Assembly: GCA_001795345.1 (NCBI GenBank)
Contig: MGON01000121.1
Coordinates: forward strand, 733-7,999
Length of the DNA: 7,267 nt
Direction of reading: 5' to 3'
Origin: Chloroflexi bacterium RIFCSPLOWO2_02_FULL_71_16
GTDB lineage: Bacteria > Chloroflexota > Limnocylindria > P2-11E
Every line of letters starts with the position of its first letter. Positions within the stretch are counted from its first letter, which is position 1. The notes beneath the pieces were generated by a model that was not told the origin of the DNA, made no database searches, and saw nothing but the letters and a program-made list of their open reading frames with translations. Positions 3,017 to 6,399 of this stretch are shown piece after piece. The position numbers and the translations under genes are program-made.

Positions 3017-3090
3017 GGGCGGTTAGCTCAGCTGGTTAGAGCACTTGCTTGACATGCAAGAGGTCACTGGTTCGAGCCCAGTACCGCCCA
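3017..3090 (+). tRNA. tRNA-Val (anticodon GAC)
   Basis: A complete cloverleaf can be drawn. The acceptor stem is GGGCGGT (3017-3023) with ACCGCCC (3083-3089). The D stem is GCTC/GAGC (3026-3029, 3039-3042). The anticodon stem is CTTGC/GCAAG (3044-3048, 3056-3060) with loop TTGACAT. The T arm is ACTGG/CCAGT around TTCGAGC (3066-3082). The anticodon at 3051-3053 is GAC, which reads the valine codon GUC (and GUU by wobble). The discriminator is A3090. The 3' CCA is not encoded, since the next bases are CGG, so it must be added by nucleotidyltransferase. No convincing terminator is visible in the 119-base spacer that follows. Confidence 0.97.
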
Positions 3091-3209: not shown

Positions 3210-4223
3210 GTGGACCCGAACGTCGTCCTGCCGCTCCTGTCGTCGGTCGCCAGCTTCGTCTTCGGAGCGCTCGTGTTCGCGCAGTGGCTCCAGCGCCGGC
3301 GGAGCTTCCAGCTGGTGTGGGCGATCGGGCTCCTCTGGTACGGCATCAGCGCCGGGACCGAGTTCGTGGGGAGCGCGTTCGGCTGGAGCGAGCCGCTCTA
3401 CCGCACCTGGTACCTGATCGGCGCGTTCTTCGTCGCCGCGTACCTGGGGATGGGCACCGTCTATCTGCTGGCGAAGACCCGCTTCGGCTACTTCGTCGCC
3501 GCCACGCTCCTGCTCGGTGGCCTCTTCGGCCTCTCCATCCGCGGGCGCTATCCGGAAGCCGGCGAGCTCGGCCTCACCGTGATCCTCTTCTCGATCCTCG
3601 CCGCAACGCTCGTCGCGACAACGACGTGGCTACGGCGCGACTGGTCCGGGCACGTGACCATGGCGATCCTGGCGCTGGGCTCCGTCGGTGTGGCCTACCT
3701 CACCCTTACCGCACAGCTTGCGGCGCCGGGCTGGGCGGTGGACCCGGTCACTCACGTCCCGGTCGGGACGGCCATCCCCGGAGCGGTCCGCGTCCTGGCC
3801 GCGCCGTTCAACATCGCGGGGGCGTTCGCCCTGGTGTTCGGAGCGCTCTTCTCCGCGTACGTCTTCATGCCCAAGAACAAGGTCATGCGGGGCCGCACGC
3901 TGCCTCCGGTCGTCGCCCAGCTCTACGGCCTGGTCGCGGTCGTCGTGAACTTCTTCGCTTCGATCCCACGCGCCGTCGCCGCGGGCAAGCGCGGCGAGCT
4001 GCACTCGCGGGTCCCCGCGACGCTGCTCATCGCCATCGGTGGCTTCATCCCCGGAGTGACCAGCGGCCTGAACCGGTTCGGATTCACGTGGGCGTTCTTC
4101 CTCGGCGAGCTCCTCGGCGTGCTCTTCATCTTCGCGGGGTTCCTGGTGAGCCGGGAGGTCTTCGCTTCGCGGGCTCGCCCCGAGCGCACGCCCGCGCTGC
4201 GCGGAGAGGCGACCTCCGCCTAG
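3210..4223 (+). CDS. Multi-pass membrane protein of unknown function
   Basis: I do not recognise this 337-residue protein. Hydrophobic segments suitable for membrane spans lie at about 4-24, 34-54, 66-87, 90-107, 118-137, 146-168, 193-219, 234-256, 268-288 and 292-314, so nine or ten helices are likely. There is no cleavable signal peptide, no obvious catalytic motif and no long soluble domain. An Arg/Lys-rich loop (QRRRS at 28-32) and a basic tail (about 317-330) would place those parts in the cytoplasm by the positive-inside rule. A Trp/Tyr-rich region (35-67, with LWYGISAGTEFVGSAF) may be family-specific. The GTG start at 3210 directly precedes the first hydrophobic segment; GGAG at 3195-3198 is a plausible ribosome-binding site. 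Codon use is the same high-GC3 style as its neighbours. It stands alone between a tRNA and the thrS riboswitch, so context gives no functional hint. A transporter or integral membrane sensor are both possible. Confidence 0.8.
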   Translation: MDPNVVLPLLSSVASFVFGALVFAQWLQRRRSFQLVWAIGLLWYGISAGTEFVGSAFGWSEPLYRTWYLIGAFFVAAYLGMGTVYLLAKTRFGYFVAATLLLGGLFGLSIRGRYPEAGELGLTVILFSILAATLVATTTWLRRDWSGHVTMAILALGSVGVAYLTLTAQLAAPGWAVDPVTHVPVGTAIPGAVRVLAAPFNIAGAFALVFGALFSAYVFMPKNKVMRGRTLPPVVAQLYGLVAVVVNFFASIPRAVAAGKRGELHSRVPATLLIAIGGFIPGVTSGLNRFGFTWAFFLGELLGVLFIFAGFLVSREVFASRARPERTPALRGEATSA

Positions 4224-4232
4224 CCTCTCCGC
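4201..4232 (+). terminator. Perfect 10-bp hairpin at the end of the membrane-protein gene
   Basis: GCGGAGAGGC (4201-4210) pairs perfectly with GCCTCTCCGC (4223-4232) around a 12-base loop that contains most of the TAG stop codon. The stem is strong and GC-rich but no T-run follows. It may be a U-less 3'-end hairpin or an RNA-stability element isolating this gene from the T-box unit downstream. The structure is directly visible; the terminator role is inference. Confidence 0.45.
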
Positions 4233-4247
4233 TGCACGGCGCAGAGG

Positions 4248-4253
4248 TATGCT
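4248..4253 (+). promoter_or_regulatory. Candidate -10 element of the thrS leader
   Basis: TATGCT fits TANNNT and ends seven bases before 4260, where the base of T-box Stem I begins. This spacing is what a transcription start at the first paired base would need. No good -35 hexamer is seen at 16-18 bases upstream, so the call rests on position and the -10 alone. Confidence 0.45.
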
Positions 4254-4259
4254 GTGCCC

Positions 4260-4476
4260 GCGCGACGACGCGGACAGCGCCTTCGATCCGTTCCGCACAG
4301 CGAGCCCCGGATGGTGCGAGGGGGCCGGTCGAGCGAAGGACACCACCGCCGAGCGCCGTGGGTGGGCCCCGTACAGCCCCTCGCAAGAGTGCTGTCGGCA
4401 ATAACCGACAGAACGTGGGTGGAACCACGGGAGCTTCGAAGGCCTCTCGTCCCGCAATGGGTCGAAGAGGCTTTTT
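4260..4476 (+). promoter_or_regulatory. T-box riboswitch controlling thrS
   Basis: A T-box leader binds its cognate tRNA and, when that tRNA is uncharged, switches from a terminator to an antiterminator. Stem I closes with GCGC (4260-4263) and GCGC (4353-4356), with an internal GA-containing loop resembling a kink-turn. Next come GCGG/CCGC (4270-4273, 4346-4349), the specifier loop, and CCTTCG/CGAAGG (4280-4285, 4334-4339). AGCGAG (4299-4304) and GGTGCGAG (4313-4320) match the distal bulge and loop motifs. The likely specifier is ACC (4342-4344), a Thr codon, followed by A. Stem III is a perfect 7-bp hairpin (4392-4398 with 4405-4411). The T-box TGGAACC (4420-4426) is a bulge between GGG/CCC (4417-4419, 4451-4453) and ACGGGAG/CTCTCGT (4427-4433, 4444-4450). 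TGGA predicts a U discriminator on tRNA-Thr. The terminator uses the same 3' strand, so the two folds exclude each other. Control is by transcription attenuation in response to threonine starvation. Confidence 0.93.
4438..4476 (+). terminator. Intrinsic terminator of the thrS T-box
   Basis: GCCTCT (4442-4447) pairs with AGAGGC (4466-4471). The inner pairs CG/CG and CCC/GGG (4451-4453 with 4459-4461) are separated by a T-T mismatch and a bulged A, and the loop is GCAAT. TTTTT (4472-4476) follows. The left arm is the 3' half of the antiterminator, so uncharged tRNA-Thr binding would prevent this hairpin from forming. Confidence 0.88.
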
Positions 4477-4542
4477 GCGTTCAACGAGTAGGACTAAAAA
4501 GCCGAAGAGGCTTTTTCTATTCGACGAGTAGTACTGAAAGGC
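4463..4542 (+). repeat. Imperfect 40-nt tandem duplication in the thrS leader
   Basis: Bases 4463-4502 and 4503-4542 are directly adjacent 40-base copies. They match at 33 of 40 positions, counted by hand, with differences at 4477-4479, 4483, 4492, 4496 and 4500. Each copy begins CGAAGAGGCTTTTT, the 3' arm and T-run of the terminator, and contains ACGAGTAG. In copy 2 the end of the unit supplies part of the thrS ribosome-binding site. The equivalent part of copy 1 is AAAAAGC, which forms the left arm of a second hairpin. Confidence 0.88.
4496..4516 (+). terminator. Second hairpin with terminator-like sequence upstream of thrS
   Basis: AAAAAGCC (4496-4503) pairs perfectly with GGCTTTTT (4509-4516) around the loop GAAGA. 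The A-tract and T-tract flanking a short GC core resemble a small bidirectional terminator. The core has only three GC pairs and the Us are inside the stem, so termination would be weak. It was created by the 40-nt duplication and lies after the main T-box terminator, outside the usual antiterminator switch. Confidence 0.45.
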
Positions 4543-4545
4543 GGT
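4536..4545 (+). promoter_or_regulatory. Strong ribosome-binding site of thrS
   Basis: GAAAGGCGGT matches the ideal anti-16S sequence GAAAGGAGGT at nine of ten positions. It ends six bases before the ATG at 4552, which fixes the thrS start. Confidence 0.85.
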
Positions 4546-4551
4546 ACCGAC

Positions 4552-6399
4552 ATGGCGAAGGAGCTGGGACGCAGGGACCACGCGGCGGAGGATCCGCTCC
4601 ATCCGTTACGGCACTCGGCCGCGCACGTCATGGCGGGCGCGGTGCTCGACCTCTTCCCCGGCACCAAGCTCGGGATCGGTCCCGCCATCAGGAACGGCTT
4701 CTACTACGACCTGGACGTCCCGCGGCCGCTCTCGCCCGACGACCTGCCACGCATCGAAGCGCGCATGCGGGAGGTCGCCAACGCCGATCACCCCTTCGAG
4801 CGCAGTGAGATGTCGCGCGAAGAAGGACTGCGCTTCTTCCGTGAGGCCGGCCAGGACTACAAGGTCGACCTCATCGAGAGCTTCGAGGAGGCCGAGGGCG
4901 CCGACGGTGGCGCGGTGAGCATCTACCGGCACGGGGACTTCGTGGATCTCTGCAAGGGCCCGCACGTGAAGCGGACCGGCGACATCAAGGCGTTCAAGCT
5001 GCTCTCGATCGCCGGCGCCTACTGGCGCGGCGACGAGTCGCGCCCGCAGCTCACGCGCCTCTACGGCACCGTCTGGCCGTCGCAGAAGGAGCTCGACGCG
5101 TACCTCGAGCGCCTCAAGGAGATCCAGCGGCGGGATCACCGCGCGCTCGGGCGGGACCTCGAGCTCTTCCGCATCGACGACGAGCTCGGGAGCGGCCTCG
5201 TGCTGTGGCTCCCGAATCTCTCCGTCGTCCGCGAGGAGCTGGAGACGTGGTGGCGCAAGGTGCACCACGAGCGCGGGTACACTCTCGTGTACACGCCGCA
5301 CATCGCCCACGAGAAGACGTACCAGCGCTCGGGCCACCTCGAGAAGTACGGGGAGAACATGTACGGCCCGCTGCTGCTGGACGAAGGCACTCAGCGCTTC
5401 TGGATCAAGCCCATGAACTGCCCGGGCCACATCAAGGTGTTCCAGTCCGGAGTGCGCTCCTACCGAGAGCTGCCCCTGCGCATCGGCGAGCTCGGAACGG
5501 TCTACCGCTACGAGCGCGGCGGCACGCTCCACGGGATGCAGCGCGTCCGCGGATTCACGCAGGACGACAGCCACATCTTCTGCAGCTGGGAGGACGCGCA
5601 GGAGGAGATCGGGAAGGTCTTCGACCTGGCGATGGAGTTCATGCGCCTCTTCGGCTACGTCGACCCCGTCATCTACCTCTCGACCCGGCCGGAGCGGCGC
5701 CTCGGCTCCGACGAGCTATGGGACAAGGCCGAGGAGGCTCTCCGGCAGGCTCTCGGGGTCCGGGAGGTGCCGTACAAGATCGACGAGGGCGGCGGCGTCT
5801 TCTACGCGCCGAAGATCGACATCAAGGTCATGGACGCCATCGGGCGCGAGTGGCAGGGACCGACCATCCAGATCGACCTCAACCTCCCGGAGCGCTTCGA
5901 CGTGACATTCGTGAACTCTCGCGGCGAGCGGGAGCGCGCGGTCATGATCCACCGCGTCCTCTTCGGGAGCCTGGAGCGCTTCGTGGGCGGGCTCATCGAG
6001 CACTACGCCGGCAACTTCCCGCTCTGGCTCAACTGGGAGCAGGTCGCCGTCGTACCCGTGCGCGAGGACGCGCTCCCGTACGCCCGCGAGGTCGCCGCGC
6101 GTCTCCGGCAGGAGGGCATCCGCGTGCGTCTCGACGAGCAGATGGCCGACATGCGCGAGCGCATCCGCGAGGCGCAGCAGCGCCGCGCGGGCTACATCAT
6201 CGTCGTGGGCGGCAAGGAGGCCGAGGCGCGGACCGTCTCCGTGCGCCGCCGCGGCGCCGGCAAGGGCGAGGAGGAGCGCGGCGTCGCCCTCGAGGAGTTC
6301 GTCCGCCGCGTGACCGAGGAGCGCGACGCGAAGTCGCTGCCTTCCGACTTCAACCCCCGCGACACGGGACCCAGCGTGGACGAGGCGGCCGTCTCGTGA
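4552..6399 (+). CDS. thrS: Threonyl-tRNA synthetase lacking the TGS domain
   Basis: This cytoplasmic class II synthetase joins threonine to tRNA-Thr using ATP. The 615-residue product begins almost directly with the editing domain: HSAAH at 21-25 and CKGPH at 134-138 are the residues that hydrolyse Ser-tRNA-Thr. The catalytic core carries the zinc ligands Cys290 (MNCPGH), His341 (DDSHIFC) and His467 (MIHR). It also has motif 2 with Arg319 (VYRYE) and motif 3 with Arg476 (GSLERF). An HGTP-type anticodon-binding domain spans about 497-590. Compared with E. coli ThrRS (642 residues), catalytic positions are shifted by 44 and editing positions by 48-52, so the N-terminal TGS domain of about 60 residues is absent. 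A TGS-free start is credible because the T-box and an excellent ribosome-binding site sit immediately upstream. A short charged tail (about 591-615) follows the anticodon domain. Expression should rise when uncharged tRNA-Thr accumulates. Confidence 0.97.
   Translation: MAKELGRRDHAAEDPLHPLRHSAAHVMAGAVLDLFPGTKLGIGPAIRNGFYYDLDVPRPLSPDDLPRIEARMREVANADHPFERSEMSREEGLRFFREAGQDYKVDLIESFEEAEGADGGAVSIYRHGDFVDLCKGPHVKRTGDIKAFKLLSIAGAYWRGDESRPQLTRLYGTVWPSQKELDAYLERLKEIQRRDHRALGRDLELFRIDDELGSGLVLWLPNLSVVREELETWWRKVHHERGYTLVYTPHIAHEKTYQRSGHLEKYGENMYGPLLLDEGTQRFWIKPMNCPGHIKVFQSGVRSYRELPLRIGELGTVYRYERGGTLHGMQRVRGFTQDDSHIFCSWEDAQEEIGKVFDLAMEFMRLFGYVDPVIYLSTRPERRLGSDELWDKAEEALRQALGVREVPYKIDEGGGVFYAPKIDIKVMDAIGREWQGPTIQIDLNLPERFDVTFVNSRGERERAVMIHRVLFGSLERFVGGLIEHYAGNFPLWLNWEQVAVVPVREDALPYAREVAARLRQEGIRVRLDEQMADMRERIREAQQRRAGYIIVVGGKEAEARTVSVRRRGAGKGEEERGVALEEFVRRVTEERDAKSLPSDFNPRDTGPSVDEAAVS

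What the first reader, a model, noticed from the sequence alone, without database searches (positions are those of the whole stretch)
4463..4542. Tandem duplication of the T-box terminator arm creates a second hairpin before thrS
Two adjacent 40-nt copies (33/40 identical) sit between the T-box and the thrS start. The left arm GCCTCT (4442-4447) can pair with AGAGGC in copy 1 (4466-4471) or copy 2 (4506-4511), and the junction forms AAAAAGCC/GGCTTTTT. The segment that is the ribosome-binding site in copy 2 corresponds to the hairpin's left arm in copy 1. This suggests an ancestral leader-to-RBS unit was copied and the older RBS became a terminator arm. The result may be a two-stage attenuator or a leader with a fail-safe terminator.
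Basis: partly seen in the sequence, partly recalled or inferred. Interest (0 to 1): 0.72.

Follow-up and report, generated by a model that had tools for sequence, protein, structure and literature searches.

The report
Duplicated T-box terminator arm before thrS
In an uncultured Chloroflexota bacterium, a 40-base tandem duplication has copied part of the likely tRNA-sensing RNA switch in front of the threonyl-tRNA synthetase gene, and the extra copy is predicted to act as a weak backup stop signal that would follow the state of the main switch.

Summary
Two adjacent 40-nt copies (4463-4502 and 4503-4542, 33/40 identical) lie between a thrS T-box (RF00230, E 2.8e-9, below Rfam's gathering score) and the thrS start. 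The T-box has an ACC specifier and a canonical antiterminator that excludes a good terminator (T1). tRNA-Thr(GGU) of the same genome ends in UCCA, matching the UGGA bulge. The duplication appears private: of 90 distinct T-box cores scanned, only this one has it, and relatives' leaders are about 50-75 nt shorter. The second hairpin (H2, AAAAAGCC/GGCUUUUU) can form but is weak as a terminator, with only three G-C pairs outside the U-run. If T1 is forced, H2 forms (p 0.93-1.00); if the antiterminator is forced, the freed copy-1 arm takes H2's left arm and H2 stays at or below 0.10 for 3' ends 4511-4520. So the duplication is predicted to make H2 a weak, T-box-coupled backup terminator. Nothing shows that it works in cells, and a neutral duplication is about as likely. 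A new variant of a known kind, of modest interest.

The parts
4248..4253 (+). TATGCT, candidate -10 box of the thrS leader
   Evidence: read by eye; similar TATNNT words precede the leader in several relatives (sequences, by eye); the consensus scan found no promoter; inference
4256..4457 (+). T-box leader (RF00230), Stem I through antiterminator
   Evidence: cmscan 46.6 bits, E 2.8e-9, below the gathering score of 93
4342..4344 (+). Specifier codon ACC (Thr), followed by a purine
   Evidence: same register relative to GAGC as CUC in the leuS T-box of the same genome; inference from alignment
4415..4455 (+). Antiterminator: helices 4415-4419/4451-4455 and 4427-4433/4444-4450 around the 7-nt bulge UGGAACC
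   Evidence: minimum free energy fold of 4405-4456 and 4405-4462, -16.0 kcal/mol; pairs checked
4438..4476 (+). Terminator T1 (stem 4438-4453/4459-4475, U-run 4472-4476)
   Evidence: fold of 4437-4476 -22.3 kcal/mol; -17.3 without U-run; not listed by the simple consensus scan
4463..4502 (+). Copy 1 of the 40-nt unit: T1 3' arm, U-run, spacer, former RBS segment
4503..4542 (+). Copy 2 of the unit: second arm, second U-run, spacer, RBS segment in use
4469..4503 (+). Copy-1 internal hairpin (anti-H2): GGCUUUUU 4469-4476 pairs AAAAAGCC 4496-4503
   Evidence: -12.7 kcal/mol, z -3.2; p 0.80-1.00 with antiterminator forced, 3' ends 4503-4520
4496..4516 (+). Junction hairpin H2 core AAAAAGCC-GAAGA-GGCUUUUU with second U-run
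   Evidence: -8.5 kcal/mol with U-run, -3.3 without
4485..4523 (+). Extended H2, predicted to form only after the polymerase has passed the second U-run
   Evidence: -16.7 kcal/mol; H2 pairing takes over at 3' ends of 4522 and beyond even with the antiterminator forced
4538..4545 (+). Shine-Dalgarno-like AAGGCGGT, 6 nt before the start codon
   Evidence: sequence; complementarity to the 16S 3' end is recalled knowledge
4552..6399 (+). thrS, threonine--tRNA ligase
   Evidence: TIGR00418 638 bits, cut-off 383.65

Best explanation
A 40-bp tandem duplication has copied the 3' arm, U-run and RBS segment of the terminator of a likely transcriptional thrS T-box, and the second copy is predicted to form a weak second terminator hairpin that would be allowed or blocked by the state of the first switch. 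The duplication leaves the old RBS segment (AAAAAGCC, call it A) between two identical arms (GGCUUUUU, X1 and X2). With charged tRNA-Thr, T1 would form and use X1, so A is free to pair with X2 and H2 forms behind T1, where it would catch polymerases that escaped. With uncharged tRNA-Thr, the antiterminator would take T1's left arm, X1 is freed and pairs with A, so H2 is not formed while the polymerase is on the second U-run and thrS is transcribed. Once transcription has passed about 4522 the longer junction hairpin takes over, too late to terminate. Shown: duplication, arms, T-box features and computed folds. Inferred: that the T-box works, that H2 terminates at all, and that the coupling operates during transcription.
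For: T-box match. tRNA-Thr(GGU) of the same genome ends in TCCA, matching UGGA. Antiterminator and T1 use overlapping bases. Constrained partition functions over 4405..end: H2 p 0.93-1.00 with T1 forced and 0.00-0.10 with the antiterminator forced, for 3' ends 4511-4520. Both hairpins, chosen after seeing the folds, are more stable than dinucleotide shuffles: junction piece z -3.41, 5 of 1000 as low; anti-H2 z -3.2, 3 of 1000. The first 14 nt of the unit (both X arms and both U-runs) are unchanged while 7 differences fall in the other 26, chance 0.035. A tandem of this quality, and the exact 8-nt X-A-X arrangement, occur in 1 of 90 distinct T-box cores, the window's own.
Against: H2 without its U-run is -3.3 kcal/mol. 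Of 60 T-box cores scored, 44 had a terminator-like hairpin, the first of them at -16.2 to -36.9 except -1.0 at L038 (my scan took an inner hairpin) and -12.0 at L144; some of those stems include a few U-run bases, so the comparison is rough. At the second U-run that scan did not pick H2 but a -16.2 kcal/mol structure holding the anti-H2 hairpin. No relative examined has the duplication, so there is no covariation. The seven differences favour the junction hairpin only weakly: the actual assignment is tied lowest with three others of 128, but random substitution reaches it in 129 of 3000 or 392 of 3000 trials by ancestor assumed, and two copy-2 units would fold better, -19.7 against -17.9. Doubling twelve relatives' own 40-nt segments gave junction pieces of -11.5 to -23.5, 5 of 12 at least as stable as the window's. 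Coupling follows automatically from doubling such a unit, so it need not be selected. Folds are equilibrium, without tRNA, Stem I or polymerase.
Confidence: 0.37

Rival explanations
1. A neutral slippage duplication: it lengthened the leader by 40 nt, T1 alone does the regulating, and the second hairpin has no use.
For: No second copy found in the relatives' sequences scanned; H2 core very weak; copies already differ at 7 of 40 positions; where the scan found a terminator in relatives' thrS leaders it was one, L024 listing the same hairpin twice.
Against: X arms and U-runs unchanged between copies (0.035); the two A/G differences in the left arm (direction unknown) give A-U where the other copy's letter would give G-U. 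Both are weak and after the fact.
Confidence: 0.42
2. The copy is an independent, unconditional fail-safe terminator that lowers thrS expression in both states.
For: Hairpin plus U-run UUUUUCUAUU; H2 can form alone.
Against: With the antiterminator forced, H2 is at or below 0.10 at 3' ends 4511-4520; only 3 G-C pairs outside the U-run.
Confidence: 0.07
3. The useful product is the extended hairpin 4485-4523 in the read-through mRNA, which caps the 5' side of the RBS, protects the mRNA after leader processing or keeps the second U-run from pairing with the RBS.
For: -16.7 kcal/mol and H2 pairing near 1.00 in both forced states from 4524 on; copy 2 alone could pair its U-run with GAAAGGC at -9.1. 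Leader processing of Bacillus subtilis thrS mRNA is recalled, not looked up.
Against: No processing data; RBS accessibility is similar in both states (mean unpaired 0.54-0.63).
Confidence: 0.11
4. Assembly error in the metagenome-assembled contig.
For: Draft genome, 131 contigs, 78% complete.
Against: Copies differ at 7 of 40 positions and carry different flanks; a false k-mer repeat would be near-exact. No reads were available to check.
Confidence: 0.03

Closest known systems
Transcriptional T-box riboswitch (Rfam RF00230), thrS type
   Same: Stem I, ACC specifier, UGGA bulge, antiterminator against terminator, upstream of thrS
   Different: Part of the expression platform, not the sensor, is duplicated downstream of the terminator
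Multiple adjacent T-boxes before thrZ and trpE in bacilli (passage in PMC2494555)
   Same: Repeated attenuation in front of a threonyl-tRNA synthetase gene
   Different: There whole T-boxes (2 or 3) are repeated; here one sensor serves both hairpins
rimP leader with a second tandem terminator and possible anti-terminator in several Gammaproteobacteria (passage in PMC2965389)
   Same: Two terminators in tandem in a leader with alternative pairing
   Different: No tRNA sensor described there; the second terminator lies upstream and is not described in the passage as a copy (its motif is inverse)
Tandem riboswitches (passages in PMC12452182 and PMC9481103)
   Same: Serial decisions before one gene
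   Different: Those have two or more sensors; here no second sensor

Membership tests
T-box riboswitch (RF00230) | Covariance model match over Stem I to antiterminator | tested here: met
   46.6 bits, E 2.8e-9, model 1-219, but under the gathering score of 93; low scores are usual in the order, 4 of 29 genomes have a match over the cut-off
T-box riboswitch (RF00230) | Specifier codon matching the regulated gene | tested here: met
   ACC at 4342-4344 by register with the leuS T-box CUC; gene is thrS
T-box riboswitch (RF00230) | UGGN bulge complementary to the tRNA NCCA end | tested here: met
   UGGA against tRNA-Thr(GGU) ending UCCA
T-box riboswitch (RF00230) | Mutually exclusive antiterminator and terminator or sequestrator | tested here: met
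   (prediction)
T-box riboswitch (RF00230) | Response to uncharged tRNA | not testable with these tools
   needs transcription assays
Tandem T-box (thrZ type) | Second complete sensor/T-box core | tested here: not met
   only one RF00230 match at E up to 1 in 4200-4600; one T-box core word upstream of thrS
Intrinsic terminator (H2) | G-C-rich stem next to a U-run | tested here: inconclusive
   U-run present; stem without it GCC/GGC only, -3.3 kcal/mol; consensus scan lists none in 3900-4700, T1 missed too

The most novel reading that the evidence does not exclude
One slippage event turned a single-decision T-box into a two-stage relay: the terminator arm released by the first switch becomes the antiterminator of the second, so one tRNA sensor sets two successive terminators. 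Because a purine-rich RBS is naturally complementary to a U-run, duplicating any terminator-arm-to-RBS unit would build such a relay at once, a general route to multi-stage attenuators.
Probability: 0.25. Interest if true: 0.6.

Novelty: new variant of a known kind. Interest (0 to 1): 0.35.

Why it matters
If the relay works, it shows how an RNA switch can gain a second, coupled decision point in one mutational step without a second sensor, and it gives a simple sequence signature (arm, complement, same arm) to search for. If it does not, it is an example of how tolerant T-box expression platforms are: among these related Chloroflexota one thrS leader is partly duplicated, one has lost its T-box core, and two show no core in the stretch read.

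Tried and rejected
Leader-peptide attenuator: rejected, the 40-nt period is not a multiple of three and the frames listed over the leader (60 aa or more) show no threonine run; shorter frames were not listed. Repeated element: rejected, the leader has one match in its genome. Copy-2 arm pairing the distal left arm: lowest-energy fold at 4511 and 4514 but p about 0.2. Selection on the seven differences: tested (swaps of the junction piece, of a longer region where the actual one ranks 2 of 128, and random substitution) and left as weak. In-silico doubling of relatives' own 40-nt segments as a null: 5 of 12 were at least as stable as the window's; it is a poor null, because their shorter leaders push the segment into the terminator's left arm, but it does not favour my reading. 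The first tandem-background count was spoiled by masked N runs and was redone without them. My first pair probabilities used a register off by one; one search replaces them. Same-genus comparison was not possible: searches list no other member of genus g1.

Full report
What is there. The window is a stretch of contig C121 of a draft genome (78% complete) whose nearest named relatives are Chloroflexi MAGs. It holds an oxidoreductase-type gene and a putative methyltransferase gene, a tRNA-Val gene (3017-3090), an open frame at 3210-4223 with no Pfam match, thrS (4552-6399, TIGR00418) and infC. The thrS leader matches the T-box family at 4256-4457 with E 2.8e-9, under Rfam's gathering score. Low scores are usual here: 29 of 29 genomes of the order have T-box matches and 4 of 29 have one over the cut-off. 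The specifier reads ACC, the bulge UGGAACC is intact, and tRNA-Thr(GGU) of the same genome ends in UCCA, which fits UGGA. The antiterminator (-16.0 kcal/mol) and terminator T1 (-22.3) use overlapping bases. This is an ordinary, probably transcriptional, threonine T-box.

The duplication. Copies 4463-4502 and 4503-4542 are 33/40 identical, far beyond chance. The unit starts in T1's 3' arm, includes the U-run, and ends in the RBS segment. The T-box core lies 135 nt before the thrS ATG, against 66-85 nt in 12 relatives and 60-81 nt in three others; taking away 40 leaves 95, nearer the relatives. Of 18 Chloroflexota thrS leaders read, 15 have a T-box core and three (L033, L036, L046) do not in the stretch read. 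Of 90 distinct T-box cores in the held loci (strict core word, at least 150 nt following), only the window's shows a tandem of this quality and the exact arm-complement-arm arrangement. Those 90 are the cores in loci that my searches returned, including 30 of the 40 matches of a pattern search over 400 genomes of the phylum, so they are a sample. The nearest relatives' thrS proteins are 81-84% identical; searches list no other member of the genus, so the age of the duplication is open.

How it could work. Call the T1 3' arm and U-run X1 (4466-4476), the former RBS A (AAAAAGCC, 4496-4503) and the second arm X2 (4509-4516). A can pair backwards with X1 (13 pairs in the forced fold; -12.7 kcal/mol) or forwards with X2 (H2, -8.5 with the U-run). 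With T1 forced, H2 has probability 0.93-1.00 for 3' ends 4511-4520. With the antiterminator forced, X1-A has 0.80-1.00 (ends 4503-4520) and H2 0.10 or less (ends 4511-4520). At 4522 H2 reaches 0.86, and from 4524 it is 1.00. So the second hairpin is predicted to read the state of the first at the moment that matters. It rests on equilibrium folding of pieces from 4405 on, without tRNA, Stem I or polymerase.

Why I stay cautious. Without its U-run H2 has three G-C pairs and -3.3 kcal/mol. Of the 60 cores scored, 44 had a terminator-like hairpin (the window's T1 among them, -17.3); apart from two low values (-1.0, a scan artefact at L038, and -12.0 at L144) their first hairpins were -16.2 to -36.9, some with a few U-run bases in the stem. 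Three cores list a second entry: L024 (the same hairpin again), L094 in a Bacillota MAG (-6.9, far downstream) and the window, where the scan picked not H2 but a -16.2 structure holding the X1-A hairpin. H2 would be a poor terminator by itself, perhaps a pause. The arrangement arises automatically when a unit with complementary ends is doubled, so its presence is no proof of selection. The seven differences lean towards keeping the hairpins (tied lowest with three others of 128; first 14 nt untouched, 0.035), but a random-substitution null reaches the observed stability in 129 of 3000 or 392 of 3000 trials, depending on the ancestor assumed, a doubled copy 2 would fold better still, and 5 of 12 doubled segments of relatives are at least as stable.

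Relation to known systems. Adjacent whole T-boxes before thrZ and trpE are reported (passage in PMC2494555), tandem riboswitches are common (passages in PMC12452182 and PMC9481103), and a second tandem terminator with a possible anti-terminator is reported for the rimP leader (passage in PMC2965389). Passages of PMC7583486 gave T-box element definitions, and passages of PMC8355165 were seen for clustered hairpins. Five searches for T-box or attenuator leaders with tandem, second or double terminators listed no title or abstract start that describes a duplicated terminator arm under one T-box sensor. They cover only open-licence PMC papers, I saw listings and passages only, and the T-box surveys of 2008-2009 (RNA; MMBR) were seen only as references.

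Verdict. Its function as a coupled backup terminator is the most specific mechanism the sequence allows, and I give it a little over one in three; neutral duplication is about as likely.

Noticed in passing
L112:1680-1752 (G000:C114:24767-24838) and 21 further loci L139, L143-L150, L152-L155, L157-L159, L161-L165: A tRNA-Ala(GGC) gene lies inside the leader of the leuS T-box, between Stem I and the T-box core, on the same strand (alignment seen for L112 only). ARAGORN found such a tRNA-Ala in 22 of the 33 T-box loci scanned, in 22 genomes; in 21 it lies within the Rfam T-box match (not L165), and in 16 of the 22 a T-box core word follows 15-99 nt later. In the window's genome the downstream gene is leuS (TIGR00396) and the specifier reads CUC; the other downstream genes were only glanced at. 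Removing the tRNA by normal processing would cut sensor from switch. Three paper searches listed no title or abstract start on it. It deserves its own study.
   Followed up: partly
L033:1271-1504 (thrS leader; same contig as L004, G021): Close relative whose thrS leader keeps Stem I and the terminator but lacks about 44 nt, compared with L034, that hold Stem III and the T-box core, so it could not form the usual antiterminator.
   Followed up: partly
L036 and L046, upstream of thrS: No T-box core word within 350 nt (L036) or the 345 nt held (L046) before the match to thrS; control may have been lost or lies elsewhere.
   Followed up: no
L041 and L044, thrS leaders: No terminator-like hairpin with U-run was found after the T-box core; UCUCG or UCGUCC of the switch can pair next to or over the GGAGG ribosome-binding site, so these two may regulate translation (read by eye).
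   Followed up: no
window 4552-6399: The ThrRS matches core, SAD and anticodon-binding domains but no N-terminal TGS domain in Pfam at E up to 0.001; that most ThrRS carry one is recalled.
   Followed up: no
L188 near position 1918 (G000:C52, beside two tRNA-Ser genes): A T-box-core-like word that is not among the five Rfam T-box matches of the genome; possibly a further T-box or chance.
   Followed up: no
window 3017-3090; L025 and L027 upstream of thrS: The tRNA-Val gene (anticodon GAC) upstream of thrS in the window has a look-alike within about 300 nt upstream of the thrS match in two distant relatives that show no T-box core there (read by eye; window gene); possible conserved neighbourhood.
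   Followed up: no
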